Below, in pieces: positions 11,498-31,780 of a stretch of DNA of 64,000 nt; the stretch's first letter is position 1, and every line of letters starts with the position of its first letter. The DNA is from an uncultured Roseicyclus sp. (GTDB lineage: Bacteria; Pseudomonadota; Alphaproteobacteria; Rhodobacterales; Rhodobacteraceae). The notes below the pieces were generated by a model. The model was not told where the DNA came from. It saw nothing but the letters and a program-made list of their open reading frames with translations, and ran no database searches. Made by a program: the position numbers and the translations under genes. The stretch spans positions 62,001-126,000 of the forward strand of contig CANLLF010000002.1 in assembly GCA_947491935.1 (NCBI GenBank), in the 5' to 3' direction.

Positions 11498-11507
11498 AGG
11501 TGCTGTG

Positions 11508-12584: not shown

Positions 12585-12664
12585 ATCGTCTCCTCCCAAA
12601 GATAAAAGATACTTGTGCATGTGGCCCGCTTGCGGGGCCGGTCATGGCGTCATGCTGAACTTAT

Positions 12665-14894: not shown

Positions 14895-14906
14895 TTGTAT
14901 CTACAA
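14895..14906. promoter_or_regulatory. GntR/HutC-type operator candidate TTGTATCTACAA
   Basis: TTGTA-TC-TACAA is an inverted repeat in the divergent gap between the MFS gene (start 14831) and the thiolase-like gene (start 14965). The identical 12-mer occurs at 31769-31780 in front of the other operon of this locus. HutC-subfamily GntR regulators are known to bind sites of the TTGTA-N2-TACAA kind, and such a regulator is encoded at 19657. Confidence 0.6.
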
Positions 14907-14964: not shown

Positions 14965-16143
14965 ATGCCTCATCATAGCGTTGCTGTCACCGGCGCGTCC
15001 CTGACGCCGTTCAACCGCCGTCGCGACGGGACGGGTTGGCGGGATTGGGTGTTTGACGCCTACAGCACGGCGCTTGCGATGTCGGATCTGGAGCCCATGG
15101 ACATCGACGAGATATTCCTCGCGTCCGAGAGTGATTTCTTCTCACTTCAGTTGAACCCTGCTTCGGTCCTCGCAACGGAGCTGGGTCTGGGTGGCGTTGC
15201 CGTGACCCGTTGCGAGGCCGGCGGTGCGTCGGGCCAGGTTGCGGTGCATGCGGGCGTCCGGGCGATCCGTGCGGGCGGTGCACGGCATGTTCTGGTTCTG
15301 GGCGTCGATCCATCCGCGTCCAGTCTCTCCGGCGATGCAATGCGGGCGTTGTATGGGTTTTCCTTTGATGCTTGGACCGACGGTATGGCTGGGGTCACCT
15401 CAACGGCGCTTTACGCATTGTCCTATCAGGCCTTCGCGGCGCGCCACGGCACGACGGAGGCCGACCTGGCGTCTGTCACCCGGCAAAATCGGGCGAATGC
15501 GATGCACAATCCCGTGGCCCATTTGCCGCGCGAAGACACGGCAGAACAGATCAATGAAAGCCCCATGATCGCGAGCCCGTACCGGAGGCTGCATTGCTCT
15601 CCACTCAGCGACGGAGCGGCGGCTTTGATCCTGTCGCGACACGAGGCTGTGCCCGCAACGCGGCGGTCCGCGCCTGGAATTGCCGGTATCGGCGCATCCA
15701 CGGATCACATGCATCTTGGCGCTCGGCCCGATCCCGGTGCCTTCGCCGCCAAGACCCGCGCCATGGAGCGCGCCTGTGCCGAAGCGGACGTAATGCCAAA
15801 ACAAATCGAACTGGCGGAAATATACGACGCCTATGCCGGGGCCCAATTGCAGGGTGTCATGGCCTTGGGCCTCAGTGATGCGCCGGGGCGTGATCACCAG
15901 GATGGGGCTTTTGCGCCGGATGGTAGATGCCCGGTGAATCTTTCGGGTGGATTGATGGGGCAAGGTGCGCCCGTCGGGGCCACCGGCGTGGGCCAGACCG
16001 CCACCTGCGCGCTTGTTCTCGAAGGTCGCTACCATGCAGGCCTTCAGCCCCAAACGCCGCCGAACTACGCCTTGGCCGATACCCATGGTGGCATTTGCAC
16101 AACGGCGGCCGTCACAATCCTGCAAAGGGAGGCGGCCGTATGA
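14965..16143 (+). CDS. Thiolase-like protein (SCP2/lipid-transfer type)
   Basis: This 392-residue thiolase-fold protein is of the kind that works with a Zn-ribbon/OB partner, encoded directly downstream. Cys83 (VTRCEAGGASG) is the nucleophile position. The C-terminal motif that normally reads GHPxGATG is GAPVGATG here, so the usual active-site His is Ala. The later segment reads HGGICTTAAV and supplies a Cys. Such pairs perform thiolysis/Claisen chemistry or retro-aldol cleavage of CoA esters. ATG 14965 is preferred over a TTG 30 bp upstream because the protein then begins at the first beta strand. The stop overlaps the next start (ATGA). Confidence 0.82.
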   Translation: MPHHSVAVTGASLTPFNRRRDGTGWRDWVFDAYSTALAMSDLEPMDIDEIFLASESDFFSLQLNPASVLATELGLGGVAVTRCEAGGASGQVAVHAGVRAIRAGGARHVLVLGVDPSASSLSGDAMRALYGFSFDAWTDGMAGVTSTALYALSYQAFAARHGTTEADLASVTRQNRANAMHNPVAHLPREDTAEQINESPMIASPYRRLHCSPLSDGAAALILSRHEAVPATRRSAPGIAGIGASTDHMHLGARPDPGAFAAKTRAMERACAEADVMPKQIELAEIYDAYAGAQLQGVMALGLSDAPGRDHQDGAFAPDGRCPVNLSGGLMGQGAPVGATGVGQTATCALVLEGRYHAGLQPQTPPNYALADTHGGICTTAAVTILQREAAV

Positions 16144-16517
16144 TCCGCCGCACTTTATCGCTGGAATATGGCCTGGAGCCTGGCTGGATGGCCCCCTTTG
16201 TTGAGGGGCTGCTGAAGGGCGAAGCGATGGCGCGTCGTTGTGAGGATTGCGGGCGCAAGAGTTTTCCACCGCACCGAACCTGCGCTTGCGGCGGGTCGGG
16301 GGCCGTTTGGGTGTCTCTGCCGGGAACGGCCACAATTCAATTTCATACCAGGGGATCTGATGGAGATTTCGCGCTCGTGCAATTCGACGGGGCGGATACA
16401 TCCACCGTGGTGAGCCTGCAAGGTATCGGAGAGGGTCAGACGAACGGGCGGATCAGCGCCCCGGACGACGCGGTGCCGAGACTGGTCCTTGGCCCGATTG
16501 AGGAAAACAGTCGATGA
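16140..16517 (+). CDS. Zn-ribbon/OB-fold (DUF35-type) acyl-CoA-associated protein
   Basis: This 125-residue protein has an N-terminal helix, then a rubredoxin-like zinc ribbon (C-x2-C...C-x-C in CEDCGRKSFPPHRTCACGG), then a short OB-like beta domain. DUF35/OB_aCoA proteins form stable complexes with thiolase-fold enzymes and are thought to help hold or shuttle CoA substrates. ATGA overlaps on both sides couple it to the thiolase-like gene and the acyl-CoA synthetase gene, which supports the partnership. Confidence 0.82.
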   Translation: MIRRTLSLEYGLEPGWMAPFVEGLLKGEAMARRCEDCGRKSFPPHRTCACGGSGAVWVSLPGTATIQFHTRGSDGDFALVQFDGADTSTVVSLQGIGEGQTNGRISAPDDAVPRLVLGPIEENSR

Positions 16518-18175
16518 CAGACCCAATCGTCATCCCGGCGGCGAGCCTCGCCGCGTTGAACCTTGTCCCTTCCGGTGACGGTTATGCCATCACGTGGCCT
16601 TCGGACACCAACATCTTCCATATGACGGTTGGCAAACACCTCGGCCCCAACACACGCGATCGTCCCGCGCTGATCTATCAGGCACCAGACGGCGCGGTTC
16701 ACACACAAAGCTTCGCCGATATCGACCGGGAGGCAACGAACCTGGCCGCCTATCTCAGGTCGCTCGGATATGGGCGCGGAAGTCTGATCGGCATCCATAC
16801 CGGCCAGCACCCCGATACGGCGATGGCTCATATGGCGGTATGCAAGTTGGGCGGTGTGGCTGTTACTCTGTCTCAACTCTATGGACCAGACACGCTCCGT
16901 CATGCGCTGGAGAATTGCAAGCTGCCGGTGGTTTTGACCGCTGCCGACGCATGGGCGGCAATGCGATCCGTTGAGCTACCGCATTTGATCCACGTCCTGT
17001 CGCGTAACCCTGTAGGCGACGATATCGACTTGGGGACCGTGCTGGAAACCGACGCGCAGGGTTTCGTACCGGACTACACCGGCGCCGGCGATCCGGCGCT
17101 GCTGATGTATACGTCCGGCTCCACCGGAAAGCCTAAGGGCATCCTGCATGGCCACCGGATTCTTGCGGCCTATACGCCCTCGATCAACCTGTTCTTCAAT
17201 CTGAGCATGGAAGATGAAGACGCTGTCTTCTACTCCCCGTCTGATTGGGCGTGGGTTGGCGGATTGCTGGACATGCTGTTCCCGGCCTGGATGGCGGGGC
17301 GGCCCATCGCGACCTCGCTGGACCGGTTTACCGCCGACACCGCCTATGAGTTTATGGCGCGCCACAAGGTGACGCACACCTTCCTCGCCCCCACAGCGAT
17401 CAAGCGCTTGGCCCAAACCGCGGACCCGAATGCGCTATACGACCTGTCCCTGCGCGTGATCTGCACGGGCGGCGAAGCGTTGGCGGCGGAAACACTCAAT
17501 TGGGCAGAACAGGACCTGGGGGTCGTCTGCAACGAGTTCTATGGAATGACCGAGGTGAACCACCTGATTGGCAATTGCGCGGCGCTTTTCCCGCGCAAGC
17601 CGGGGTCCATGGGCCGTGCCTATCCCGGCCACAAGGTGCTTCTGGTCGATGCGGATGGGGAGGAGGTCGCGCCCGGTGAGCCGGGGGAAGTCGTTACGCT
17701 GCAAACCTCACCCACCCGGTATCTGGGCTATCTCAACAATCCGGACAAAGAGGCGGACCTGCTGCACGGTCCGTTCATGCGCACCCATGATTTGGCCGTG
17801 CGCGATACAGACGGGTACTTTTGGTACAAGGGGCGCTCGGATGATCTGATAAAGTCGTCGGGCTTTCGGATTGGCCCGGCTGAGATCGAGGAATGCTTGC
17901 TGTCCCATTCCTCCGTGGCCGAGGTTGCCGTGGTCGGCAAGCCCGATGTGGATCGCGGTTCGATTGTGAAGGCGTTTGTGAAGCTGCGCGCAGGTGTGGC
18001 TGAGACGGACGATCTGAAAGTGGAACTGCGCGAACACGTCAAGACGCGGCTCGCGGGCTACAAGGCGCCGCGCGAAGTGGCGTTTGTGACGGGGTTTGAG
18101 ATGACGTCCTCTGGCAAGATCAACCGTCGCGCTCTGCGCGATGCAGAACGTCTGGCCGCGGAGGGCACGCCATGA
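16514..18175 (+). CDS. AMP-forming acyl-CoA synthetase
   Basis: This 553-residue ANL-superfamily enzyme activates a carboxylic acid to its CoA thioester with ATP. The P-loop-like motif MYTSGSTGKPKG is at about residues 198-209, the adenylate motif YGMTE follows, the hinge region is KSSGFRIGPAEIE and the C-terminal catalytic lysine is in TSSGKINRR. It resembles acetyl-/propionyl-CoA synthetases and medium-chain ligases more than aryl-CoA ligases, but the acid is not identifiable. Coupled by ATGA overlaps to the OB protein and the aldehyde dehydrogenase, it would activate the acid made by that dehydrogenase and pass the CoA ester to the thiolase-like enzyme. Confidence 0.9.
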   Translation: MTDPIVIPAASLAALNLVPSGDGYAITWPSDTNIFHMTVGKHLGPNTRDRPALIYQAPDGAVHTQSFADIDREATNLAAYLRSLGYGRGSLIGIHTGQHPDTAMAHMAVCKLGGVAVTLSQLYGPDTLRHALENCKLPVVLTAADAWAAMRSVELPHLIHVLSRNPVGDDIDLGTVLETDAQGFVPDYTGAGDPALLMYTSGSTGKPKGILHGHRILAAYTPSINLFFNLSMEDEDAVFYSPSDWAWVGGLLDMLFPAWMAGRPIATSLDRFTADTAYEFMARHKVTHTFLAPTAIKRLAQTADPNALYDLSLRVICTGGEALAAETLNWAEQDLGVVCNEFYGMTEVNHLIGNCAALFPRKPGSMGRAYPGHKVLLVDADGEEVAPGEPGEVVTLQTSPTRYLGYLNNPDKEADLLHGPFMRTHDLAVRDTDGYFWYKGRSDDLIKSSGFRIGPAEIEECLLSHSSVAEVAVVGKPDVDRGSIVKAFVKLRAGVAETDDLKVELREHVKTRLAGYKAPREVAFVTGFEMTSSGKINRRALRDAERLAAEGTP

Positions 18176-19644
18176 GCACCATCGCCCTCCTGCCGGAGGT
18201 TTCGCGATTCATTGGCCGCACCCAAGGCCTTCGTATCAATGGCCAAGAAGTGATGGCGGAGGAGGCGCTCACTGTCCTCAATCCCTCGACCGGAGGCCCT
18301 CTTGCACAGGTCGCCAAGGCCGGCGCGCGGGAAGTTGATCTGGCAGTGACTTCAGCGTCCCAAGCCTTTCATGATGGTCTTTGGACCGCTATGGGCCCGG
18401 ACGCCCGCAGCCGAATCTTATGGCGCTTGGCCGATCTGATGGAGGAGCGCGCTGCGATTTTCGGGCAGCTGGATGCGCTCGACAACGGCAAGCCATTTGC
18501 TGTTGCACGCGACGTCGATGCGATGTGGTCGGCGCGGCATTTTCGCTATTTTGCGGGCTGGCCCGACAAGATTGAAGGCGCAACCATCCCGGTCAATATT
18601 CCCGACCGCCTTAACTACACCCTGATCAGACCGGTCGGCGTTTGCGGGCTGATCACACCGTGGAACTACCCGCTTCTGATGGCGTCGTGGAAGCTGGCGC
18701 CCGCCCTGGCGGCGGGAAACACGGTTGTGCTGAAACCGTCGGAAGAGACCCCCTTGTCAGTGCTCTACCTCGCCGACCTGGCGCTTGAGGCGGGCCTACC
18801 TCCGGGTGTTTTGAATGTGATCCCCGGATTGGGCCACGAGGCGGGGGCCGCATTGGCGGTCCATCCCGGGGTCGCCAAAGTGGGCTTTACCGGCAGCACC
18901 CGTACCGGTCGGGCGATTGTTGAGGCCTCGGCGGGAAACCTCAAACGGGTCTCTCTGGAACTCGGCGGAAAGGCGGCCAACATCCTCTTCGCCGATGCGG
19001 ATTTGAGCCGTGCCATTCCCGGGGCCTTCTGGGCCAATTTCGGCAACAATGGCCAAAGCTGCACCGCGGGTTCGCGTTTGTTTGTTCACGCGGATATCCA
19101 TGATGAGGTGGTCGCAGGCCTGTCTGAGATCGCGGCAGGCCTACGCGTGGGGCCGGGCATGGACCACCCCGCCCACGACCTTGGCCCTGTGATCAGTGAG
19201 AAACAGATGCGGATGATCCTTGGCCATGTCGACAACGCCCAAGCGCAGGGCGCGACATGCCTCGTGGGCGGCGCGCGGGCGGGTGATAGAGGCTGGTTTA
19301 TCCCGCCCACGATCATAGGCGATGTCACAGACGACATGACGATTGCGCGTGAGGAGGTTTTCGGCCCCGTCCTGTCCGTCCTGAAATTTGCCGACGATGC
19401 CGAGGTCTTGGCCCGCGCTAATAGCTCTGACTACGGTCTTGCCGCGGGCCTTTGGAGCCAGGACATCACGCGCGTGCGGCGTATGGCAGATGCGCTTCAG
19501 GCCGGCACTGTCTGGGTGAATTGCTGGGGTGAAACCGACGCCGCATCGCCATTTGGAGGCGTCAAGCAATCGGGTTATGGCCGCGAGATGGGACGCGATG
19601 CCATTGCACTTTATAGCGAGACGAAAAGCGTTTGGATCGCCTGA
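18172..19644 (+). CDS. NAD(P)-dependent aldehyde dehydrogenase
   Basis: This 490-residue ALDH-superfamily enzyme carries all catalytic residues: Asn164 (PWNYP), Glu263 (LELGGK) and Cys297 (GQSCTAGS), plus the cofactor motif FTGSTRTG and EEVFGPV. It oxidises an aldehyde to a carboxylate in the cytoplasm. The family cannot be narrowed to a substrate, although the betaine-aldehyde/gamma-aminobutyraldehyde type is closest in motif spelling. In context it could oxidise the aldehyde released by the LacD-type aldolase in the opposing operon and supply acid to the acyl-CoA synthetase next to it. Confidence 0.93.
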   Translation: MSTIALLPEVSRFIGRTQGLRINGQEVMAEEALTVLNPSTGGPLAQVAKAGAREVDLAVTSASQAFHDGLWTAMGPDARSRILWRLADLMEERAAIFGQLDALDNGKPFAVARDVDAMWSARHFRYFAGWPDKIEGATIPVNIPDRLNYTLIRPVGVCGLITPWNYPLLMASWKLAPALAAGNTVVLKPSEETPLSVLYLADLALEAGLPPGVLNVIPGLGHEAGAALAVHPGVAKVGFTGSTRTGRAIVEASAGNLKRVSLELGGKAANILFADADLSRAIPGAFWANFGNNGQSCTAGSRLFVHADIHDEVVAGLSEIAAGLRVGPGMDHPAHDLGPVISEKQMRMILGHVDNAQAQGATCLVGGARAGDRGWFIPPTIIGDVTDDMTIAREEVFGPVLSVLKFADDAEVLARANSSDYGLAAGLWSQDITRVRRMADALQAGTVWVNCWGETDAASPFGGVKQSGYGREMGRDAIALYSETKSVWIA

Positions 19645-19656
19645 GGAACGGAAAAC

Positions 19657-20403
19657 ATGCAACCTGAAGCAACGCCAAAATACGAGCAGGCCTACCGGGT
19701 CATCCTGCAACGGTTGAAGGCCGGGCGCTATCCTGTCGGCGGCCGAATGCCCACGGAAAGTGAACTGGCCGCGCATTTCGAGGTGAGCCGCGTCACCATC
19801 CGCCGCGCGCTCGATATGCTGGTGCAGGATGGCTATGTCGAAAGCAAGCAAGGCAGCGGCTATACCGTGCTGACCCTGTCGCCGGCCTCGGATACCTGCC
19901 TGACCTCCTTCACCGATGCGATGCTGCGCGCCGGCCATGAGCCGACATCGCGGTTCCTGTCGTTGGACCATTTCGCGCCGGGTGCGCCCGAAATCGCGGA
20001 TTTACCCCCGGAATTGGCCGATACCCCGATCACACGACTGATCCGGTTGCGTCTGGTCGATGGCGCGCCGCGCATGTTGGTGATGACCTATGCGCCAAGC
20101 CATCTCTTGAAGGACGCGACGGAAGCGGACTTTCCCGAAACGGGCCCCGAGCAGTCGATCCTGCGCATCCTGAGCAGCCGGTTTCAGCTTGAGTGGTCCG
20201 CCGCCTGCGAAGATATCAGTCCGGTTCTGGCGGATGCGGAGATGGCGGGGATATTCGAGATGGAGCCCGGTTTGCCGCTTCTGAAGCAGGCTTGCTCGGC
20301 CTTCGACGATGTGGGCCGGATGGTCTTCCATGAGGATGTGTTCCGCAATGGACGCGTCAGTTTCAACCTGTCGCAACGCTCGCGAACGCCGCGCCACCAT
20401 TGA
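19657..20403 (+). CDS. GntR family regulator, HutC/UTRA type
   Basis: This 248-residue regulator has an N-terminal winged helix (residues about 8-72, with PTESELAAHFEVSRVTIRRAL as recognition region and SKQGSGYTV as wing) and a C-terminal UTRA ligand domain (about 90-240). Members sense a pathway metabolite, often a sugar phosphate or amino acid derivative, and release DNA. It sits inside the operon it probably controls, between aldehyde dehydrogenase and nucleoside hydrolase. TTGTATCTACAA, which suits a HutC-type dimer, occurs ahead of this operon and of the 31.7-21.5 kb operon, so it is the best candidate for a shared local repressor. Confidence 0.9.
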   Translation: MQPEATPKYEQAYRVILQRLKAGRYPVGGRMPTESELAAHFEVSRVTIRRALDMLVQDGYVESKQGSGYTVLTLSPASDTCLTSFTDAMLRAGHEPTSRFLSLDHFAPGAPEIADLPPELADTPITRLIRLRLVDGAPRMLVMTYAPSHLLKDATEADFPETGPEQSILRILSSRFQLEWSAACEDISPVLADAEMAGIFEMEPGLPLLKQACSAFDDVGRMVFHEDVFRNGRVSFNLSQRSRTPRHH

Positions 20404-20417
20404 AAAGGGGAACAACC

Positions 20418-21500
20418 GTGCCAGACTTCACGAAACTCTCGCCGGAGCTGATGAACGAGCGCCTTGCCCTGCCGCAGGGCGGCCCTGTTCGGCTGCTGAT
20501 CGACACCGACACCGCCAATGAGATCGACGATCAATATGCGCTGGCATGGGCGTTGCTGTCGCCTGAGAAGATGACGGTGGAGGCGATCACGGCCGAGCCT
20601 TTTTCCTTTGCACATCACCAGCCGGAGCTTCTCAAGGCCGAGCGTGCGATTGAAGACGGATCCGAGCACAAGGAACATCTGGTGGGCGGCTTTCAGGGCT
20701 GGATCGACCGGTTGCATGCCCAAGGACGCCGGGCCGCGGATCTGACCTTCGTAGGACCCGCAGAGGGGATGGAGCTGAGTTACCGTGAGATTCTGACGAT
20801 CTACGACAAGCTGGGCCTGCCATCCGAAGGAAAGGTTTTTCGCGGCGCAACCCACTATATGCGCGATGCGGACGATATCGTGGAGGCCGACGCGGTGGAT
20901 ACAATCATCGACCTCGCGAAATCCGGCGATGCGCCGCTTTACATCGCGGCCATGGGTTGCGTCACCAACATCGCAGCAGCACTACTGAAAGCGCCCGAGA
21001 TCGTTGAGCGGATCGTGGTGATTTGGACTTCGGCCTACCCGTCATCAGCGCCGCATTGCAATCGCCCGTCTCTAAATCTTGTACAAGATATTCACGCTTC
21101 GCGACTGATCTTCGACAGCGGTGTGCCGCATGTCTATCTGCCGGGGTATCATGTCGGGGCGCAGCTCAAGATTTCGCGGCCGGAGATGGAGGCGCACGTG
21201 AAAGGGAAGGGCGCCATTGGCGATTATCTGCACCACCTCTACACCCACAATCCGCTCCACGACATGTTCGCGATCACCGATCGGGACCGACGCACTTGGG
21301 TGATCTGGGATATCATCAATATCGCTTGGCTCATCAATCCCAACTGGGTGCCGACGCATCTGACGACATCGCCAATCTTGGATGATGATCTCTATTGGCG
21401 GCATGACGCCACACGGCACCAAATGCGTGAGGCACATGATGTGCAACGAGATGAGATTTTCCTCGATTTCTACGACAAGCTCGTGCGCGCGGCTAAGTGA
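20418..21500 (+). CDS. Nucleoside hydrolase family protein
   Basis: This 360-residue protein has the N-terminal calcium/ribose-binding motif DTDTANEIDDQ (Asp29, Asp31, Asp37, Asp38), the family's DxDxxxxxDD signature. These enzymes hydrolyse the N-glycosidic bond of ribonucleosides and related riboside-like compounds. GTG 20418 is preferred over a TTG at 20400, because the TTG overlaps the gntR stop and leaves the AAAGGGG site inside the gene. A perfect 14-bp palindrome lies within the gene at 21076-21089. The stop overlaps the convergent isomerase-like gene by 8 bp. It is longer than the classical 310-residue enzymes, so the substrate may not be a canonical nucleoside. Confidence 0.87.
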   Translation: MPDFTKLSPELMNERLALPQGGPVRLLIDTDTANEIDDQYALAWALLSPEKMTVEAITAEPFSFAHHQPELLKAERAIEDGSEHKEHLVGGFQGWIDRLHAQGRRAADLTFVGPAEGMELSYREILTIYDKLGLPSEGKVFRGATHYMRDADDIVEADAVDTIIDLAKSGDAPLYIAAMGCVTNIAAALLKAPEIVERIVVIWTSAYPSSAPHCNRPSLNLVQDIHASRLIFDSGVPHVYLPGYHVGAQLKISRPEMEAHVKGKGAIGDYLHHLYTHNPLHDMFAITDRDRRTWVIWDIINIAWLINPNWVPTHLTTSPILDDDLYWRHDATRHQMREAHDVQRDEIFLDFYDKLVRAAK

Positions 21501-23675: not shown

Positions 23676-23684
23676 ATCTTTCTC

Positions 23685-24581: not shown

Positions 24582-24583
24582 GG

Positions 24584-25600
24584 CTATCCTCCCTGCCGGT
24601 CGATGTGAGGAAATTGCGGCGCAGCGTGCGGTGCCAGCCAGAACTCGGCCATCTGGGCCGTTGGTGTGAACAGCGAGATTGAAAACCCGCCCATCTCCTG
24701 GGTCGTGGAATAGCTTCCGATCATCGGCGCGGTGGGCGTGATCCGGTGGGTTGCAAGATGGGCCGTGACCTCACGGTAGATCGTCAGCAGCTCCATCATC
24801 GTGGTTCCCCCGCTGCCGTTGATCAGCGCGATGGTGGGTGTGCCGGAGGCGATGGGGCGATCCTCCAGGAGCTCAGCGACCATGAAGCGCACGAGATCCT
24901 TCGCAGGGCCAACCTTGCGGCGGCCCACGCCTGGCTCTCCATGGACCCCCATACCGATGAAGACCTCATCGTTGGGCAGGGTGAACATCAATTCGCCGCT
25001 CAGCGGGGACACGCCGGGGGAAACGGCAACGCCCAGGGTCCGTGTGGCGGCGCGCACCTCTTCGCCGAGTGTCATGAGGTCGTCGAGGCCCATCCCCGAC
25101 TCTGCGGCCGCGCCGAGAATCTTATAGATGAACATCGTGCCCGCGGCGCCGCGACGCTCGTCCTCTTGGCCCTTGGGGGCGGAAGATATGTCGTCATACA
25201 TCAGCAGGGGCCGTACGTTCAGCCCGTCCTCCTGCGCCATCATGGCTGCTGCATTGCCGTTGATAACGTCACCCTCATGGCGAGAGATCAGAAGGATCGC
25301 GCCTGCGTCGCCAGTCACTTCCTCGATCCCCTCAAGGATCATGTCGGGGGACGGCGCGGCGAAGACATCGCCCACGACATTGGCATCCAGCAGGCCTTGG
25401 CCCACGAAGCCCATGGCAATCGGTTCATGCCCGCAGCCATTGCCGATCAACAGAGCGACCTTCCCGTCTTTCGTCCGCAGGATTTTGCGGCGCACCACGC
25501 GCGGGTTGTCGCCGCGCGCCACGATGCCGGGATAGGCCGCAATGAACCCGTCAATCATGTCGTCGGGCATCCGATCTTTGGAGTTAAACAGCTTCTTCAT
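24584..25600 (-). CDS. Dihydroxyacetone kinase-like protein, DhaK subunit
   Basis: This 338-residue protein has the DhaK domain: GNGCGHEP at residues 53-60 and His220 in MGVHGEPG, the histidine that binds the ketone substrate covalently as a hemiaminal. Paired with DhaL it phosphorylates dihydroxyacetone or larger ketoses such as tetruloses (erythrulose kinases are of this type). No phosphotransferase subunit DhaM is nearby, so phosphate probably comes from ATP. The dhaL stop is tightly linked, and the aldolase gene follows by 2 bp. The name DhaK is kept off the symbol field because the true ketose may not be dihydroxyacetone. Confidence 0.88.
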   Translation of the reverse strand: MKKLFNSKDRMPDDMIDGFIAAYPGIVARGDNPRVVRRKILRTKDGKVALLIGNGCGHEPIAMGFVGQGLLDANVVGDVFAAPSPDMILEGIEEVTGDAGAILLISRHEGDVINGNAAAMMAQEDGLNVRPLLMYDDISSAPKGQEDERRGAAGTMFIYKILGAAAESGMGLDDLMTLGEEVRAATRTLGVAVSPGVSPLSGELMFTLPNDEVFIGMGVHGEPGVGRRKVGPAKDLVRFMVAELLEDRPIASGTPTIALINGSGGTTMMELLTIYREVTAHLATHRITPTAPMIGSYSTTQEMGGFSISLFTPTAQMAEFWLAPHAAPQFPHIDRQGG

Positions 25601-26106
25601 GTCGCCCGTTCCTGAAAGGCCGCCAGTATCTCCGCGACGGAGGTTGCACCCGCATCCACATGGCCCACGCCTGCGCCTTCGACGTATTTCGCACGGCCGC
25701 GTTTGGCGGCCATATCGCGTGTTGCGTCCCGGCCGTCTGCGGCAGCCTTGGCCGGGTCGTCAGAGACGGAGGCCGGGATCAGTGCATCTAGCATCGTCTT
25801 GTCGCCCGCTTTCGCCTGCCCCAGAATCGCGACCTTGTCCGCGGCCTCCGCCAATGCCTCGCTCAATGGTGTCCCCGAGTCCGCCTTGCCCAAAGCCGCG
25901 ATCAGCACTGCAAAGAGAGAGCCGCTGGCGCCACCCGCCGCCCGGCGAAAGGCCTTTTCGGGCGCCTCGTCCGTGCCTGCTGCCGCACGCAGGCCTTTCA
26001 GAATCGTCGTACCGTGGTCGCCGTCGCCCGTTGCCGCATCCAGCGCGTTCAGACTGTCCTCCAGCGCCTCGAAACGGGTCGCCACATCTGCCCAGAACGC
26101 CTTCAT
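25597..26106 (-). CDS. Dihydroxyacetone kinase-like protein, DhaL subunit
   Basis: This 169-residue all-alpha nucleotide-binding subunit has the signature GDGDHGTTI at about residues 27-35, whose aspartates bind two Mg2+ ions and the nucleotide. It transfers phosphate to the ketose held by DhaK. The length is somewhat below the usual 200-210 residues of E. coli DhaL but includes the full helical core. The gene has 4-bp overlaps with both the epimerase-like gene upstream and dhaK downstream. Confidence 0.86.
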   Translation of the reverse strand: MKAFWADVATRFEALEDSLNALDAATGDGDHGTTILKGLRAAAGTDEAPEKAFRRAAGGASGSLFAVLIAALGKADSGTPLSEALAEAADKVAILGQAKAGDKTMLDALIPASVSDDPAKAAADGRDATRDMAAKRGRAKYVEGAGVGHVDAGATSVAEILAAFQERAT

Positions 26107-26939
26107 CCGAATGTCTTCCGCATGAAGGCCAGCGCACGACGCGCGGCATCTGTCGGCTGGGGTTCGATGTTGCGCCAGATGTTAAGATCTGCACTGGCCG
26201 GGTTGCCCGCGATCACGAACATCTCCGCCACGATCCAACCGTCATATCCCGCCGCATCCAACCCCGCCTTCACACTGTCCCACGGCAAATGCCCGGACCC
26301 AGGCACGCCCCGGTCGTTGTCGGAGACGTGGAAATGCACCAGTTTGTCCGACGCGCCCGCAATTGCCGCCGCCATGTCCTTTTCTTCCATGTTCAGGTGG
26401 AAGGTATCCAACAGCGCGCCAACCCGATCCGAACCGGACGCGCGCGCAATCGCGCAAGCCTCATCTGCGGTGTTCACAAGATCCGTCTCGAACCGATTCA
26501 GCGCTTCGATGCCGAGGGTTACGTCATGGTCCTCCAGCGTGGCGTGCAACTGGCCCAGACATTCCGCCGACCGTGCCGCGCGTGCGGGCTTGTTGAGCGG
26601 GTCGAATACACCCCAGGGTGCGAAGACAACCCCCGCGAGGCCGCGCGAGCCAATACGTGCCGTCGTCTCGATCGCCCATTTCAGATAGTGCACGCCAGCC
26701 GCGCGGACGTCTGCGTCCTCTGACGTGATGTCCTTGTCCGGCGCCAACCCGTCCGAGCAGGTGACGCCTAGCCCATGGTCCCGCACGGCGCGGCCCAAAG
26801 CTTCTGCCTTTTCATCGCTCATGCCGAGGAGCGAGACCTCCACACCGTCAAAGCCAAGATCGGCAATTGTTTTCAGGATCGGTGTGATTTCGTCCGTCCA
26901 GCGGGCCTGCCACAGCCCTGCGTGAATGCCGTACTTCAT
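26103..26939 (-). CDS. Sugar phosphate isomerase/epimerase (tagatose-3-epimerase-like TIM barrel)
   Basis: This 278-residue TIM barrel has metal ligands placed as in D-tagatose/D-allulose 3-epimerases: Glu145 (GIEALNRFE), Asp178 (LLDTFHLN), His204 (HFHVSDNDR) and Glu239 (IVAEMF), with Arg210 nearby for substrate contact. These enzymes epimerise free ketoses at C3. ATG 26939 is chosen for its ATGA overlap with the ABC ATPase stop; the frame opens 12 bp earlier. Position just ahead of dhaL-dhaK suggests that it adjusts ketose stereochemistry before phosphorylation. Confidence 0.87.
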   Translation of the reverse strand: MKYGIHAGLWQARWTDEITPILKTIADLGFDGVEVSLLGMSDEKAEALGRAVRDHGLGVTCSDGLAPDKDITSEDADVRAAGVHYLKWAIETTARIGSRGLAGVVFAPWGVFDPLNKPARAARSAECLGQLHATLEDHDVTLGIEALNRFETDLVNTADEACAIARASGSDRVGALLDTFHLNMEEKDMAAAIAGASDKLVHFHVSDNDRGVPGSGHLPWDSVKAGLDAAGYDGWIVAEMFVIAGNPASADLNIWRNIEPQPTDAARRALAFMRKTFG

Positions 26940-27970
26940 GAGATCACCCATAATGTTTGCGGGGGCAGGTGGATCGGAACGATGTCGCCGGGCTTGAACC
27001 CTTCCACTTCATTGGGGTTCACCACCGCGTCGATTTCCGTCTCACCGACGCGCAACTTCAGACGGGTCTGCGTGCCAAGGTAGATGACGTCGGCAACCCG
27101 TGCCGATAGGTTGTTGCCGTCTCCTTGGCCCACCCGCACATTCTCGGGTCGAAAGGTCAGCTTGCCTGCGCCTTCAACCGCACCATCGGCCAGGGTTAGC
27201 TGCCCCAACGGGCCATCGAATGTGCCGCCTACAGACTTGCCGGGGATGAAGTTGTGGCCACCGAAGAAGCGCGCCGTCGCTTCGTCGACGGGGCGTTTAT
27301 AGAAAGCGTCCGCGCGGTCGTATTGCTTCATCTGCCCGTCGAGGATCAGCGCCACGCGGTCGGCCAGCACCACGGCCTCTTCCTGGTCGTGGGTCACGAA
27401 GATCGTGGTGATCCCCATTTCCTGCTGCAACGACCGGATCAGGTCGCGCATCTCGAACCGCAAATGGGCGTCGAGGTTCGATAGCGGCTCATCCAGCAGC
27501 AGGACCTCTGGTTGAACGATCAGCGCGCGGGCCAAGGCAATGCGCTGCTGCTGGCCGCCGGACAGGGCGCTTGGCCGACGGTCGCCCACATCGGGCAGTT
27601 TCACCAGATCCAGCATCTCGCTCACGCGGCGCTTGATCTCGGTCGGGTCCGTCTTGCGCATTTTGAGGCCAAACCCAACATTGTCGGCCACGGACATGTA
27701 GGGGAACAACAGGTAGTTCTGAAACACCATCACGACGCCCCGATGCTCGGGCTTGTCGCGCAGGATGGAGCGGTCGTCGAACCGCACATCGCCCGATGTC
27801 GGCTCCAGCAGGCCCGCGATCATCTTCATCGTCGTGGTCTTGCCACAGCCCGACGGACCCAGAAGCGCGGTCAACTCGCCCGATGCGATTTCAAGGCTGA
27901 GACGGTCCAGCGCAGGGGTATCGGCCCCGGGGTAGACTTTGGTCAGCTCTTGGATGGAAACATGCGTCAT
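26936..27970 (-). CDS. ABC transporter ATP-binding protein
   Basis: This 344-residue importer ATPase has Walker A GPSGCGKTT, signature LSGGQQQRIALARAL, Walker B VLLLDEPLSNLD, the H-loop (FVTHDQEE) and a C-terminal TOBE-like regulatory domain from about residue 240. It resembles PotA/UgpC-class ATPases and energises the two permeases, to which it is coupled by 4-bp overlaps. Confidence 0.93.
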   Translation of the reverse strand: MTHVSIQELTKVYPGADTPALDRLSLEIASGELTALLGPSGCGKTTTMKMIAGLLEPTSGDVRFDDRSILRDKPEHRGVVMVFQNYLLFPYMSVADNVGFGLKMRKTDPTEIKRRVSEMLDLVKLPDVGDRRPSALSGGQQQRIALARALIVQPEVLLLDEPLSNLDAHLRFEMRDLIRSLQQEMGITTIFVTHDQEEAVVLADRVALILDGQMKQYDRADAFYKRPVDEATARFFGGHNFIPGKSVGGTFDGPLGQLTLADGAVEGAGKLTFRPENVRVGQGDGNNLSARVADVIYLGTQTRLKLRVGETEIDAVVNPNEVEGFKPGDIVPIHLPPQTLWVIS

Positions 27971-28791
27971 ATGCGGCCAAAGCCTCCGACAGCGCCGGAG
28001 CGGCCCGAAAGCTGTTTGGCGGTGAGTGTCAGGATCAGGATGCCAGGCAGGATGTAGATCATGCCGATGGCTCCGGTGATGTCATTGCGCCCGGATGTGG
28101 CGAAGTTGAACAGCAGCAGCGGCAGGGTCACGACGCGACCACCGCCGACCAGGAGCGTCAGGATGTATTGGCTCCACGAGACGAGGAACGCAAAGAGGCC
28201 GCCGACAATGATGCCGGGCATGATCGCGGGCAGCGTGACGTACCAGAAGGTTTTGAGCGGTGACGCCCCGAGCGAGCGTGCCTGCGCCTCGAATGCCGGG
28301 TCGTAATTGGAAAAGATGCCCGCCATCACCAGTGTCATATAGGGCAGCGTCGGGATCAGGTGGACAAGGATCACACCGTGGACGGTGTTGGTCAGGCCCA
28401 GATAGATGAAGACGGTATGGACGCCGAGGACCACGGCAATCCCCGGCACGATGGTGGGGGCAAGGATCATCAACTCGATCACTTCCTTGCCCTTGAACTT
28501 GTACATGCCCAGCGCGCGGCCAGCGGGCACGCCCACCAGGATAGACAGCACGGTTGCTGCGAGCGATATCCCGATTGTCAGCCAAAGCGCGTCCAGCACA
28601 CCGGATGTGTCCGAAAGCGCATAGCGCCAGGCGTCCAACGTCCACATGCGCGGCAAGATGTCGGGGAAGAACCACCCCCGTGCCACTGACCAGATCGCCA
28701 GCGGGATCAACGGCAGCACCAGCCAGGTCACCAGCAACAGGCAGGTGATGTAGCGGAAGGTTTTGGTCCACAGACCGTCTTGGCCGATCAT
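27967..28791 (-). CDS. ABC transporter permease
   Basis: This 274-residue inner-membrane protein has six predicted helices and the cytoplasmic EAA-type loop FEAQARSLGASPLKTFWYVTLP, which contacts the ATPase. It is the second permease of the YnjB-type importer. In E. coli the corresponding YnjC is a single fused double-length permease; here the two halves are separate genes. Confidence 0.9.
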   Translation of the reverse strand: MIGQDGLWTKTFRYITCLLLVTWLVLPLIPLAIWSVARGWFFPDILPRMWTLDAWRYALSDTSGVLDALWLTIGISLAATVLSILVGVPAGRALGMYKFKGKEVIELMILAPTIVPGIAVVLGVHTVFIYLGLTNTVHGVILVHLIPTLPYMTLVMAGIFSNYDPAFEAQARSLGASPLKTFWYVTLPAIMPGIIVGGLFAFLVSWSQYILTLLVGGGRVVTLPLLLFNFATSGRNDITGAIGMIYILPGILILTLTAKQLSGRSGAVGGFGRI

Positions 28792-28792
28792 C

Positions 28793-29650
28793 TCAGCTCC
28801 TCACCCGTTTGCGAGAATAGCGAATGTAGATGAAGATCATCACCGCGCTCAGGATCGCGATGATGATGGCGAGCGCCATCGCCTCGGGGCGCGCGGCAAG
28901 ATCCACGTCGGTGTAGCTACGGTATGCCAGAACCGGCAGGGCGGCGGGGTAGTTGGCCCCTAAAAGCGCCGGGATTTCGTAGGCGCCAAAGGTGAACGCG
29001 AACACGATGACCGAGGCCGACAGGATCCCCGGAAAGATCAGCGGCAACAACACGTGGCGAAAAGTCTGCCACTTGGAAGCGCCAAGCGATCGCGCGACGC
29101 TCTCGTAGTTTTCGCCCAGGGCCTGCATGTTGGCCAGCACAATGACCCCGATGAACGGCACCTCTTTCCAGACATATTGCAAGATGATGCCGATGGCGAA
29201 GGGGTCGAAGACCATGGCCGGGAAATCGGCGGGCCGCTGGATCAGATCGACCTCCGCCGCGAGGCGGGCGAAGACGCCCGATTGCGAGAAGAGGTAAAGG
29301 ATGCCGATCGCACCCACGAGGTGGGGAACCGTCAGGTTGAGCTGAAACAGGAAGTTGATCACCGCGCGCCCGATGAAAGCGCGTCTAAGTAGTAGCGCCG
29401 CACCGACAGCGAGGATGCAGGAGATCAGCGTGGAAGTGAACGAGATGTGGAAGCTCAGCAGGAAGGACCAGTAGAATTCCTCGTCCGTGAAAACGTTGAT
29501 ATAGGCCTGCAAGTTCGGTTCGGTCAGGCCGATGACCGGCATGTAATTGAAACTGCGCATCAACCCGATCAGCAGGCCGCCGAAGAACAGCAGCACGATG
29601 ACTGACATCGCGGGCAGCAGCAGCAGGATGATCTTGAGACGGTCGGACAA
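28793..29650 (-). CDS. ABC transporter permease
   Basis: This 285-residue protein has six predicted transmembrane helices and an EAA-type loop (YESVARSLGASKWQTFRHVLLP). It heterodimerises with the permease encoded 1 bp downstream. The gap of 71 bp to the binding-protein gene upstream contains an imperfect GC-rich inverted repeat (about 29681-29707), likely to reduce permease expression relative to the binding protein. Confidence 0.9.
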   Translation of the reverse strand: MSDRLKIILLLLPAMSVIVLLFFGGLLIGLMRSFNYMPVIGLTEPNLQAYINVFTDEEFYWSFLLSFHISFTSTLISCILAVGAALLLRRAFIGRAVINFLFQLNLTVPHLVGAIGILYLFSQSGVFARLAAEVDLIQRPADFPAMVFDPFAIGIILQYVWKEVPFIGVIVLANMQALGENYESVARSLGASKWQTFRHVLLPLIFPGILSASVIVFAFTFGAYEIPALLGANYPAALPVLAYRSYTDVDLAARPEAMALAIIIAILSAVMIFIYIRYSRKRVRS

Positions 29651-29721
29651 GGGGCGGAGTCTTCTCTGCGGAGTGTTGTTCCCCCGCGACCCGCTGCGAG
29701 CCGCGAGGGATGGGAGAGGCT

Positions 29722-30954
29722 TTAATTGCCGACGTTTTCGATCCAGCCCTGCTCAATCGCGGAAATCCACGAGGCTTGCAGCTCGGGGAGCGCCGTCGCC
29801 GCCAGATCCTCAGCAGGGACCACATTCGGATGACGTTCGATGGCATCGAAGATCTCGCGGATTTCCCCCTCGACGCGGGTCATGTCGATACCGGGCTGGG
29901 TACCCCAGACATCAGGCTGTGCCTTTTCGACCTGCGCCTCAGCCGACAGAAGCACATTCTGCAACACCAACGCGGCGGCCTTGTTGGGGGAATTGAACGG
30001 GATCAGCGTGTAGTTCGTGTTGCCGATAGTCCCATCTGTCATCGCATAACCTTGCGTGGTCGGTGGGAAGGTCCCGTTCTCGATATTGATGCCGACGCCC
30101 GCCGGCTCGTAGTTGAAGACGATGCCGACTTCCTGGTTGGCATAAAGCTGCTCCAACGCGGCGATGGTGGTCGGGTAGGTCTCGCCCTCGCGCCAGAGAT
30201 AGGGCTCGATATCGTTGAGGATCTGCCACGTTGCCGCCGCCGCCTCGTCATACCGTTCCTGATCGAACTCACCCAACAGGTTCTCCACGCCACCGGCGGC
30301 GTGGTAGAAGACGTGCCGCACGAAGACGGAGCCGTTGAAATCGGGCGGCGCGGGGTAGGTGAATTGGCCCGGATTGGCCTCGATCCATTCCAGCAATTCG
30401 GGGATGGACGTGGGCGGCGCATCGTAGAGCGCGGTGTTGTATGCAAAGGCAAATTGCGCCGTGGACCACGGCACCTCGCACCCGTTGACGGGCACGCCGA
30501 AATCGTTGGCAATCGCCGGATTGTCCCAGTCGACCAACACATTGTTCGGCAACACATCGGTGTAGCCGCAGTAGGCCAGATCGGCCTGCTGCATGGTGCG
30601 GAAGTTCTCGCCGTTGATCCAGATCATGTCGACGGAGCCTTCGTCCATGACGCCGGCTTCCCGCTCGCCCAAGACGATGTTGACCACGGAGGCCGTGTCG
30701 GAAACGCCCACGCGGTTGAGCGTGATGTCATACTCCTCCTCAAGGATACCTCCGATGTATTCCGAGACGTATTGGTTGATCGTGTCCGACCCGCCCCACA
30801 TCAACCAGTTTACTTCGCCGCCGCGCGCAAGCTCGACAATTTCGTCCCACTCCATGTTGTTGAGGGCTTCACCGTCAGCGGTGTCAGCCATCGCCGTGAA
30901 AGGCAGCATCGCCGCTGTCGCCGCGAGCGCGGCCCATTTCGATAAATGTCTCAT
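29722..30954 (-). CDS. ABC transporter substrate-binding protein, YnjB type
   Basis: This 410-residue periplasmic protein has a signal peptide (about 1-23, ending near TAMADTA) and the segment VNWLMWGGSDTINQYVSEYI, typical of the YnjB (COG4134) family, plus NGCEVPWSTAQFAFAYN. The YnjBCD substrate has not been firmly established. ATG 30954 is preferred because GGGAGGAAAG precedes it and it begins the signal peptide. In this operon the ligand is probably the glycosidic or nucleoside-like compound degraded by the neighbouring enzymes. Confidence 0.86.
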   Translation of the reverse strand: MRHLSKWAALAATAAMLPFTAMADTADGEALNNMEWDEIVELARGGEVNWLMWGGSDTINQYVSEYIGGILEEEYDITLNRVGVSDTASVVNIVLGEREAGVMDEGSVDMIWINGENFRTMQQADLAYCGYTDVLPNNVLVDWDNPAIANDFGVPVNGCEVPWSTAQFAFAYNTALYDAPPTSIPELLEWIEANPGQFTYPAPPDFNGSVFVRHVFYHAAGGVENLLGEFDQERYDEAAAATWQILNDIEPYLWREGETYPTTIAALEQLYANQEVGIVFNYEPAGVGINIENGTFPPTTQGYAMTDGTIGNTNYTLIPFNSPNKAAALVLQNVLLSAEAQVEKAQPDVWGTQPGIDMTRVEGEIREIFDAIERHPNVVPAEDLAATALPELQASWISAIEQGWIENVGN

Positions 30955-30981
30955 CTTTCCTCCCAAAGGTTGATGTCAGGT

Positions 30982-31734
30982 CTATGTCGCGCTCGCCGCC
31001 TCCACGACGTGTAGGGCCACATCGAAGACAATCTCGTTGGATCGTTTCAATCTTGCAGCATCGTCCGGTTCCAAGGAGTCCATGAAGGTCCGCCCGAGGG
31101 GCAGGGCATCCCAGACCGACAGCATGGATAGCGTCCTGGCACCGTATTTGTTGCCCGCGGCAATCACGGCGGACGTTTCCATATCAATCGAGACCAGCCC
31201 CTCTGCCGTCCAGCTTGCACACATCTCATCGGATTGGGCAAAAAGGGACGGCCATGTCAGGTGTTTGGTGCGGGTTGTGCCGACGTCCCGGGCGCCGAGG
31301 GCCGTTTCGGCCACATCCACCAGCTCGGGCGCGGTGTAGACCGTCTCGCTCGCACCATAATATTGCGACACGCCATCGCGGGCAGCACAGCTTCCCGGCA
31401 AGGCGACCATACCTGTTGATACGTCCACATCCAACGTCCCGCAGGTGCCGATCTGGATCAGCAGGGGCGTCCCCATCTGCGCGAAGATATGCGCAGGCTC
31501 CACGGCGCGCGCGGCCCCGTAGGCGCAACAATAGGCGACGCTTAGGCCATTCCAGGTGCCCACAAACATATCCGGAAAGGGCAGTTCGCGCACGTGGTCG
31601 AGTTTGCCCAACCGCGCTTTCGTCGCCGTACCGCGCCACCAGGTCCCCTCGAGGATCAGGGCATCCGGCTCCTGACCTTGAGGCATCTCAAGGGCGTCTC
31701 GCCATATCTGGGCAGAGTAATCCAAGATCGCCAT
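30982..31734 (-). CDS. Nucleoside phosphorylase (PNP/UDP family)
   Basis: This 250-residue protein resembles uridine/purine nucleoside phosphorylases. IQIGTCGTLD is the phosphate/ribose-region motif and SIDMETSAVIAAG matches the family motif whose Met-Glu binds the ribose hydroxyls. The enzyme cleaves a nucleoside with phosphate to base and pentose-1-phosphate. ATG 31734 is preferred; an ORF from 31794 would run through the operator. It is the first gene of the 31.7-21.5 kb operon, with the operator candidate about 35 bp upstream. Confidence 0.85.
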   Translation of the reverse strand: MAILDYSAQIWRDALEMPQGQEPDALILEGTWWRGTATKARLGKLDHVRELPFPDMFVGTWNGLSVAYCCAYGAARAVEPAHIFAQMGTPLLIQIGTCGTLDVDVSTGMVALPGSCAARDGVSQYYGASETVYTAPELVDVAETALGARDVGTTRTKHLTWPSLFAQSDEMCASWTAEGLVSIDMETSAVIAAGNKYGARTLSMLSVWDALPLGRTFMDSLEPDDAARLKRSNEIVFDVALHVVEAASAT

Positions 31735-31768: not shown

Positions 31769-31780
31769 TTGTATCTACAA
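31769..31780. promoter_or_regulatory. GntR/HutC-type operator candidate TTGTATCTACAA
   Basis: This 12-mer is identical to that at 14895-14906 and lies about 35 bp upstream of the nucleoside phosphorylase start. It is followed at once by CTTGATAGGAACAAG, a weaker CTTG/CAAG inverted repeat that could be a second half-occupied site. Confidence 0.62.

What the first reader, a model, noticed from the sequence alone, without database searches (positions are those of the whole stretch)
14965..31734. Possible undescribed nucleoside/glycoside catabolic pathway
Within one apparent regulon are a YnjB-type ABC importer, nucleoside hydrolase, nucleoside phosphorylase, fucose-isomerase-fold protein, ketose 3-epimerase-like protein, DhaK+DhaL, LacD-type aldolase, two oxidoreductases (SDR, ALDH), acyl-CoA synthetase and a thiolase/OB pair. 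A consistent order is: import, removal of a base or aglycone, aldose-ketose isomerisation, C3 epimerisation, ketose phosphorylation, cleavage to a triose phosphate and an aldehyde, oxidation to acid, CoA activation, thiolytic or retro-aldol step. I know of no described pathway with this enzyme set.
Basis: inference. Interest (0 to 1): 0.75.

Follow-up and report, generated by a model that had tools for sequence, protein, structure and literature searches.

The report
Marine regulon for an unknown sugar-like compound
A set of about eighteen genes that appear to be switched together, kept as a unit in many marine bacteria and on three plasmids, seems to import an unknown sugar-containing compound and break it down by a route that matches no described pathway we found; the compound itself has not been identified.

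Summary
Every named enzyme type is present at 14965-31734. The plus and minus operons carry the same near-palindrome, TTGTATCTACAA, in their promoter regions; exact copies occur nowhere else in the 4.65-Mb genome. Similar sites lie before target genes in 53 of 62 related loci (19 permuted controls: mean 2.4, largest 7). Ten core genes lie together in 44 of 66 loci: one collinear order in 22, convergent as here in 17, other in 5. Three plasmids, the only ones of 72,556 with the key proteins, carry the unit.

Corrections: the 'thiolase' lacks the thiolase Cys (Gly in 53 of 53) and has the Y-D-x-Y/F motif of Sal/Ltp2 retro-aldolases plus a zinc/OB partner. The 'fucose isomerase' folds like arabinose/fucose isomerases and keeps metal ligands. 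ALDH, SDR and the phosphorylase-like gene are optional. An MFS transporter often belongs.

Most likely: furanoside import, hydrolysis, isomerisation, epimerisation, 1-phosphorylation, splitting to DHAP plus an aldehyde, and a CoA ligase/retro-aldolase arm. Whether that arm takes the aldehyde or an aglycone acid is open. Substrate unknown; arsenosugars are a bold candidate.

The parts
13683..14831 (-). MFS transporter (SfMCT/oxalate-formate-like), divergent from the thiolase-like gene
   Evidence: NF049980 111 bits, cut-off 320 not met; found in 16-17 of 66 loci, next to the thiolase-like gene in the maps, mostly with the operator-like site between them
14895..14906 (.). operator-like near-palindrome TTGTATCTACAA, copy 1
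14965..16143 (+). thiolase-fold protein without the thiolase cysteine; predicted acyl-CoA retro-aldolase
   Evidence: Gly87 53/53, Tyr287 53/53, Ala335 53/53; alignments; PMC12329534 passages
16140..16517 (+). zinc-ribbon/OB (DUF35-like, ChsH2-like) partner
   Evidence: zf-ChsH2 19.9 bits, under the 23.2 cut-off; C33, C36, C47, C49 in 38/38
16514..18175 (+). AMP-forming acyl-CoA ligase
   Evidence: AMP-binding 214 bits; 54 of 66 loci
18172..19644 (+). aldehyde dehydrogenase (optional)
   Evidence: Aldedh 562 bits; 23 of 66 loci, 21 of 44 complete ones
19657..20403 (+). GntR/UTRA (HutC-type) regulator, probable owner of the operator-like site (inference)
   Evidence: GntR 72.5 and UTRA 65.4 bits; 50 of 66 loci
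20400..21500 (+). nucleoside-hydrolase-fold enzyme with altered sugar-binding residues (start codon uncertain)
   Evidence: IU_nuc_hydro 60.7 bits; Asp27 (one undetermined), Asp29, Asp35, Asp36 kept, Ser216 54/54 where solved relatives have Glu
21493..22914 (-). arabinose/fucose-isomerase-fold aldose isomerase (FucI1)
   Evidence: model and fold search; E292, D316, H436/H437 invariant in 10 sequences
22911..23675 (-). SDR oxidoreductase (optional)
   Evidence: 15 of 66 loci
23685..24581 (-). LacD-type class I aldolase
   Evidence: NF009498 231 bits over the 184 cut-off; Lys188 49/49
24584..25600 (-). DhaK-type kinase subunit
   Evidence: Dak1 314.9 bits; His220 59/59
25597..26106 (-). DhaL-type kinase subunit
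   Evidence: Dak2 80.7 bits
26103..26939 (-). ketose 3-epimerase-like protein
   Evidence: PF01261 149.9 bits; NF051856 218 bits, cut-off 300 not met; best PDB relatives are tagatose/psicose 3-epimerases
26936..27970 (-). ABC importer ATPase
27967..28791 (-). ABC permease
28793..29650 (-). ABC permease
29722..30954 (-). YnjB-type binding protein
   Evidence: NF008633 460 bits over the 203 cut-off; no PDB relative at E 0.001
30982..31734 (-). phosphorylase-superfamily protein (nucleosidase or phosphorylase; optional)
   Evidence: PNP_UDP_1 54.3 bits; a relative at 39% or more in 17 of 66 loci, of which seven are 40-44% copies lying between ATPase and epimerase; Gln94 18/18 at the position of the PNP phosphate-binding Arg (role recalled)
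31769..31780 (.). operator-like near-palindrome TTGTATCTACAA, copy 2, about 35 bp upstream of the phosphorylase-like gene

Best explanation
One GntR/HutC-type regulon for the use of a small furanosidic, nucleoside-like compound. Shown by sequence: gene set, shared operator-like site, joint inheritance, conserved catalytic residues in FucI1, DhaK and LacD, and loss of thiolase residues in the thiolase-like protein. Inferred: the YnjB-type importer takes the compound up; the nucleoside-hydrolase-like enzyme (in some strains also the phosphorylase-like one, a GH51-like furanosidase or a sulfatase) releases a free aldose; FucI1 makes the ketose; the 3-epimerase adjusts C3; DhaKL phosphorylates C1; LacD splits the ketose 1-phosphate into DHAP and an aldehyde R-CHO; ALDH (own or housekeeping) makes R-COOH; the AMP ligase makes R-CO-CoA; the cysteine-less thiolase-fold protein with its OB/zinc partner cleaves this beta-hydroxyacyl-CoA (or isostere) by a retro-aldol reaction to acyl-CoA plus a carbonyl product; the MFS protein exports an end product. 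Confidence about 0.75 for one regulon with a sugar arm to DHAP and a CoA ligase/retro-aldolase arm; about 0.45 for the strictly linear order given here.
For: Shared operator-like site. One collinear order thiolase-like-OB-ligase-epimerase-DhaL-DhaK-LacD-(ALDH)-GntR-FucI-ABC-hydrolase in 22 of 44 complete loci (maps) and, with an MFS in front, on three plasmids. Co-occurrence: 9 of 9 family genomes with the thiolase-like orthologue also hold FucI1; the same 3 of 72,556 plasmids hold thiolase-like, FucI1 and hydrolase. In 12 genomes examined, eight of them with split or variant clusters, a hydrolase orthologue (56% or more) is present in 11 and LacD in 11, nine at 54% or more and two at 40-41%; G401 lacks both. 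FucI1 fold and metal ligands. Retro-aldolase signature: Cys to Gly and Y-D-x-Y/F plus DUF35-like partner; in two genomes thiolase-like and ligase genes (with an OB gene called in one) lie beside acyl-CoA dehydrogenase-like and enoyl-CoA hydratase-like genes, which could supply a beta-hydroxyacyl-CoA (by eye). ALDH sits next to LacD in one gene order and next to the ligase in the other, as a linear route expects.
Against: No ALDH orthologue lies in 23 of 44 complete loci. The ligase/aldolase block lies apart from the sugar block in several genomes and without any sugar gene in the stretches read from two, which a strictly linear route does not predict. Common pentoses or hexoses would not give a beta-hydroxy acid that needs this arm. 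The hydrolase lacks the Asp of the HD pair in 45 of 54 aligned sequences, so its reaction is uncertain. The second acid/base residue of Ltp2 (Tyr) or Sal (Cys) is not conserved here. No substrate was identified.
Confidence: 0.45

Rival explanations
1. Branched route: the hydrolase splits an imported glycoside into a pentose or hexose, which goes through isomerase, epimerase, kinase and aldolase to DHAP plus a common aldehyde, and an acidic aglycone, which the ligase and retro-aldolase degrade separately.
For: ALDH optional; ligase/aldolase block without sugar genes, beside TRAP, acyl-CoA dehydrogenase-like and enoyl-CoA hydratase-like genes in two genomes (by eye); block separate from the sugar block; thiolase-like gene missing and a TPP E1 pair in its place in two genomes while the sugar genes stay; a GH51-like arabinofuranosidase in the sugar block in four genomes, with a second isomerase in three of them.
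Against: FucI1 keeps company with the ligase/aldolase block rather than the sugar block in split clusters; ALDH positions fit a linear route; no natural furanoside of a beta-hydroxy acid is known to me as abundant in seawater.
Confidence: 0.35
2. Ordinary nucleoside use: the hydrolase frees ribose from nucleosides, which is split to DHAP and glycolaldehyde; the CoA genes are side genes.
For: Nucleoside-hydrolase and phosphorylase folds.
Against: The CoA genes share the operator-like site and the gene order and occur in 52-54 of 66 loci; hydrolase sugar-binding residues are changed in all 54 aligned sequences at one position and 45 at another.
Confidence: 0.08
3. Two unrelated pathways that merely lie side by side.
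For: Two convergent operons in the window.
Against: Shared operator-like site, one collinear order in 22 loci, plasmid-borne units.
Confidence: 0.03

Closest known systems
Sulfoglycolysis of the sulfo-EMP type (isomerase, kinase, LacD/YihT-type aldolase, aldehyde dehydrogenase)
   Same: SftI-like isomerase fold, sugar-phosphate aldolase giving DHAP and an aldehyde (pathway recalled); a paralogous cluster that looks like this occurs in the same family (L043: FucI-like, LacD-like, PfkB, ALDH, TRAP, read by eye)
   Different: DhaKL kinase, 3-epimerase, furanoside hydrolases, CoA ligase and retro-aldolase; FucI1 reaches SftI with 91 bits against a 700-bit cut-off
Sal/Ltp2-DUF35 steroid side-chain aldolases
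   Same: nucleophilic Cys replaced by Gly, catalytic-base Tyr in Y-D-x-Y/F, DUF35-type partner
   Different: sequence nearer to PDB acetyl-CoA acetyltransferase 7yvy and acetoacetyl-CoA thiolase 6esq (153 and 114 bits) than to lipid-transfer protein 6ok1 (38 bits); second catalytic residue not conserved; sugar operon
DhaK-type tetrulose kinase pathways and the DHAP shunt for 5-deoxyribose and methylthioribose (recalled, not tested)
   Same: ketose phosphate split to DHAP and an aldehyde, nucleosidase entry
   Different: other isomerase, kinase and aldolase families; no CoA arm
ArsK arsenite exporter
   Same: the MFS upstream of the thiolase-like gene in 17 loci has ArsK as best NCBIfam hit in 11 of 11 scanned
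   Different: 59-107 bits against a 400-bit cut-off; the window's own MFS is of another subfamily

Membership tests
Sal/Ltp2-type acyl-CoA retro-aldolase | thiolase nucleophile Cys replaced | tested here: met
   Gly87 in 53 of 53
Sal/Ltp2-type acyl-CoA retro-aldolase | catalytic-base Tyr in Y-D-x-Y/F motif | tested here: met
   Tyr287 53/53, Asp288 52/53 (one undetermined), Tyr290 51/53 with two Phe; motif from PMC12329534 passages
Sal/Ltp2-type acyl-CoA retro-aldolase | second acid residue (Tyr344 of Ltp2 or Cys304 of Sal) | tested here: not met
   the window protein reads Y-D-A-Y; Ala335 is invariant at the GHP site; the position of Ltp2 Tyr344 was not aligned directly; His374 is an untested candidate
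Sal/Ltp2-type acyl-CoA retro-aldolase | DUF35/zinc-ribbon partner | tested here: met
   four Cys in 38/38; partner found in 51 of 66 loci; Pfam zf-ChsH2 just under its cut-off
Sal/Ltp2-type acyl-CoA retro-aldolase | retro-aldol activity | not testable with these tools
   needs an assay
Thiolase | nucleophilic Cys, catalytic His of GHP and HDAF motifs | tested here: not met
   Gly87, Ala335, Tyr287
L-arabinose/L-fucose isomerase superfamily | fold and Glu/Asp/His metal ligands | tested here: met
   TM 0.79/0.76; E292, D316, H436/H437 invariant in 10 sequences; ligand roles recalled
Sulfoquinovose isomerase SftI (NF048012) | curated score | tested here: not met
   91 against 700 bits
Inosine-uridine nucleoside hydrolase | calcium-site aspartates and sugar-contacting Glu and Asp | tested here: inconclusive
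   N-terminal Asp residues kept; Glu to Ser216 54/54, HD Asp kept in 9 of 54; residue roles recalled
LacD tagatose-1,6-bisphosphate aldolase | Schiff-base Lys and family score | tested here: inconclusive
   Lys188 49/49 (role recalled); NF009498 met, TIGR01232 161 of 432 bits not met
ArsK (NF033733) | curated score | tested here: not met
   71-107 bits and 59 bits for the L101 copy, against 400
Sulfo-EMP sulfoglycolysis | sulfoquinovosidase and sulfolactaldehyde-specific genes | not tested
   no such family was named among the hits of the regulon proteins, but this was not searched for

The most novel reading that the evidence does not exclude
The regulon degrades arsenosugars (5-deoxy-5-dimethylarsinoyl-ribofuranosides and their nucleoside and sulfate forms). 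The hydrolase and phosphorylase-like enzyme free 5-dimethylarsinoyl-ribose; isomerase, epimerase, DhaKL and LacD give DHAP and dimethylarsinoylacetaldehyde; ALDH and ligase give dimethylarsinoylacetyl-CoA; the cysteine-less thiolase-fold enzyme breaks the C-As bond as an isosteric retro-aldol, giving acetyl-CoA and dimethylarsinate, which an ArsK-like MFS exports. Points in favour: an ArsK-like MFS directly upstream of the thiolase-like gene in 17 loci; a sulfatase with the operator-like site in two SAR116 loci; dimethylarsenoacetic acid (thio form) is a reported arsenosugar metabolite; a TPP enzyme could equally expel such a leaving group from the aldehyde (inference). Points against: low abundance of arsenosugars (recalled), ArsK scores far under the cut-off, no other arsenic gene recognised among the flanking genes that I read by eye, no ArsK-like MFS in the window's own cluster, and acyl-CoA dehydrogenase-like genes beside the ligase/aldolase block elsewhere, which suggest ordinary carbon substrates.
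Probability: 0.13. Interest if true: 0.9.

Novelty: new variant of a known kind. Interest (0 to 1): 0.62.

Why it matters
A compact catabolic unit, on plasmids in three cases and found from Roseobacter relatives to SAR116 assemblies, points to a dissolved compound that marine bacteria use and for which no degradation route was found in the searches made. It joins a DHAP-yielding ketose-phosphate route to a cysteine-less thiolase-fold, retro-aldolase-like enzyme. Naming the substrate would link a gene marker to a carbon (perhaps sulfur or arsenic) flux in the sea, and the shared operator-like site gives a direct way to screen for it.

Tried and rejected
Thiolytic step: rejected. Ordinary nucleoside use: judged unlikely because the CoA genes share operator-like site and gene order. 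Sulfoquinovose: SftI score far under the cut-off; a separate FucI/LacD/PfkB/ALDH/TRAP cluster in relatives looks like that pathway (by eye). 5-deoxyribose with X = H: would need no aldolase after the ligase. Methylthioadenosine: I see no plausible CoA-ester cleavage without prior S-oxidation. Apiose, gonyol, carnitine and galactofuranose were considered from memory and not tested.

Distant hydrolase homologues in other genomes (L165-L168) sit in unrelated contexts and told nothing. The FMO/OYE clusters around FucI1 relatives (L068, L075, L077) could not be interpreted. Literature: six searches listed no paper with this gene set or with enzymes of arsenosugar breakdown; only listings were seen apart from the papers named in the report; one query was rejected for its wording. 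In PMC6656958 artificial digestion with gut bacteria gave thio-arsenosugar and no dimethylarsinate, which lends no support to bacterial cleavage.

With one mismatch allowed the operator pattern is not enriched genome-wide (4 matches against 7 for the reversed control); the case rests on the two exact copies and on conservation in relatives. Gene calls in relatives come from a simple ORF picker of my own plus BLAST to window proteins; ORFs were dropped when they overlapped a better one or failed identity thresholds, and some contigs are truncated, so absences there are weak. One search counts (ORF-based) differ (tblastn): 22 against 23 ALDH, 37 against 51 OB, 48 against 51 LacD, 43 against 50 GntR1.
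Full report
WHAT IS THERE. The window lies at G000:C2:62001-126000 in a 4.65-Mb genome; its named relatives in this search are Alphaproteobacteria for the most part, mostly Rhodobacteraceae-type by record title, with many marine names. Plus strand: thiolase-like 14965-16143, OB/zinc-ribbon 16140-16517, AMP ligase 16514-18175, ALDH 18172-19644, GntR/UTRA 19657-20403, nucleoside-hydrolase-like to 21500. Minus strand: phosphorylase-like 31734-30982, YnjB-type binding protein, two permeases, ATPase, 3-epimerase-like, DhaL, DhaK, LacD, SDR, arabinose/fucose-isomerase-like to 21493. Many neighbours overlap by four bases.

ONE REGULON. The two promoter regions share the 12-base near-palindrome TTGTATCTACAA (14895-14906 and 31769-31780); with up to one mismatch, 0.02 matches are expected in the window by shuffling and two exact ones are found. 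In the whole genome exact copies occur only at these two places; with one mismatch there are 4 matches against 7 for a reversed control, so only the exact copies count. In 62 related loci with target genes, TTGTA-N2-TACAA with at most one arm mismatch lies near the start of a target gene in 53; 19 permuted arms gave a mean of 2.4 and at most 7 loci; exact arms 14 against 0. The sites lie before the thiolase-like gene and its divergent MFS, before the phosphorylase-like or binding-protein gene, before the ATPase or epimerase in the other gene order, and between thiolase-like gene and sulfatase in two SAR116 loci (L081, L114). That GntR1 binds them is inferred.

ONE INHERITED UNIT. A genome-contig scan with a FucI1 alignment (A1, 10 sequences) gave 66 loci. 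All ten core genes lie in one locus in 44 of 66: 22 in one collinear order, 17 in the window's convergent order, 5 otherwise. The binding protein of the collinear group is only about 31-36% identical to the window's. Of 388 family genomes 9 hold the thiolase-like orthologue (52% identity or more; next 37%) and all 9 are among the 12 of 394 with FucI1 at 55% or more; the other three are two fragmented assemblies (G158, G227) and G312, a paralogous cluster. Among 72,556 plasmids three hold the thiolase-like protein (E 1e-50), three FucI1 and three the hydrolase (E 1e-40): the same three records, with the whole unit in Paracoccus seriniphilus p599725 and Marinovum algicola pMaD8 and all but ALDH in Parasedimentitalea marina pW43B. 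Twelve genomes, eight with split or variant clusters and four others, were searched for missing parts: hydrolase in 11, LacD in 11 (two at 40-41%), thiolase-like orthologue (53% or more) in 9.

THE ENZYMES. FucI1 has no Pfam or PDB sequence match but its model fits L-arabinose isomerase (TM 0.79) and L-fucose isomerase (0.76), and Glu292, Asp316 and His436/437 are invariant in ten sequences. LacD keeps Lys188 (49/49), DhaK His220 (59/59). The hydrolase keeps the N-terminal aspartates but has Ser216 where solved relatives have Glu, and the Asp of the HD pair in only 9 of 54; in known enzymes these contact the ribose (recalled), so its sugar or leaving group is probably not that of a common nucleoside. 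The phosphorylase-like protein has Gln94 (18/18) at the position of the phosphate-binding Arg of PNP (recalled), so it may be a hydrolase; not settled. The thiolase-like protein lacks the Cys nucleophile (Gly87, 53/53), the GHP His (Ala335) and the HDAF His (Tyr287) and has Y-D-x-Y/F. PMC12329534 (abstract, outline and passages seen) reports that Sal has Gly in place of the nucleophilic Cys and that Tyr of YDHF or YDCY is the base of the retro-aldol reaction, with a DUF35 partner; the same features are met here, but the second acid residue is not, and by sequence the protein is nearer to an acetyl-CoA acetyltransferase and an acetoacetyl-CoA thiolase (153 and 114 bits) than to a lipid-transfer protein (38 bits). 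It may work like Sal/Ltp2; it is not filed as a member.

VARIANTS THAT INFORM THE MECHANISM. ALDH is present in 21, the phosphorylase-like gene in 15 and SDR in 11 of the 44 complete loci. In L110 and L113 a TPP-dependent E1 alpha/beta pair (L113 alpha by Pfam E1_dh; beta and the L110 copies by eye) precedes GntR1-FucI1, and their genomes have no thiolase-like match at E 0.001. In G394, G395, G397 and G400 a GH51-like arabinofuranosidase (G397 copy: NF051901 255 bits, cut-off 625, and Alpha-L-AF_C; the others 71-72% identical to it) lies in the sugar block, in three of them with a second isomerase in the same stretch. In G888 and G983 thiolase-like (45-47%) and two ligase genes, with an OB gene called in G983, lie with TRAP, acyl-CoA dehydrogenase-like and enoyl-CoA hydratase-like genes and no sugar genes in the stretch read (by eye). 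A sulfatase-like gene clusters in five loci, L071, L074, L081, L108 and L114 (Pfam Sulfatase tested for L114 only). These show a sugar block and a CoA block that can part, which leaves the link between them open: linear (aldehyde from LacD oxidised and activated) or branched (aglycone acid activated).

TRANSPORTER. In 17 named loci an MFS gene lies directly before the thiolase-like gene, the aligned parts 12-156 bases apart; on the three plasmids the annotated MFS and thiolase genes overlap by 4-11 bases (plasmid copies not scanned). ArsK (NF033733) is the best NCBIfam hit in 11 of 11 scanned (71-107 bits, next family at most 32). Of seven other MFS proteins ArsK is absent from five complete lists and from the 25 best of two longer lists, and it is not hit by the window's MFS at E 1e-8. 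By coordinates the cluster copy is the best ArsK-like protein of its genome in 12 of the 15 genomes with such a copy among 20 searched; three genomes hold a better one elsewhere. All cluster copies are far under the 400-bit cut-off. This, the sulfatase, and arsenosugar metabolites reported in human urine (dimethylarsinate, thio-dimethylarsenoethanol, thio-dimethylarsenoacetic acid; PMC6656958, passages; a reference title on arsenobetaine degradation via dimethylarsinoylacetate in PMC12608789, passages) suggest the arsenosugar reading, which I hold at 0.13. [quoted passage not shown]

VERDICT. A real, single catabolic unit, sometimes plasmid-borne, with no described counterpart in the listings of the searches made (open-access library). 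The enzyme kinds are known, the combination appears new, the substrate is not identified.

Noticed in passing
window 32312-32388: tRNA-Met gene on the minus strand between the unit and the next GntR gene (32455-33147); that GntR had no tblastn match at E 1e-15 in the 66 loci, so it probably does not belong to the unit, and the tRNA may mark its edge.
   Followed up: partly
L068 5560-19555, L075 410-13028, L077 3736-13392: FucI1-like genes (56-67%) in another cluster with flavin-monooxygenase-like and OYE-type genes; L075 also has an acetoacetyl-CoA ligase over the TIGR01217 cut-off and class II aldolase-like and PfkB-like genes (by eye): a second, uninterpreted pathway.
   Followed up: partly
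L043 5526-13288: FucI-like/LacD-like/PfkB/ALDH/mutarotase-like cluster near a TRAP transporter that looks like sulfoquinovose breakdown (by eye).
   Followed up: no
window 9604-12620: TRAP-transporter-like genes beside the unit (read by eye); no operator-like site was found there at up to one mismatch.
   Followed up: no
L098 17134-18342: CmlA/FloR-family MFS efflux protein (over the NF033134 cut-off) next to the unit in Nitratireductor alexandrii.
   Followed up: no
L062 11522-12142, L110 6341-6970, L165 2507 onwards: YnjF-like CDP-alcohol transferases near the unit or a hydrolase homologue, recalling the E. coli ynjBCDEF neighbourhood (recalled, by eye).
   Followed up: no
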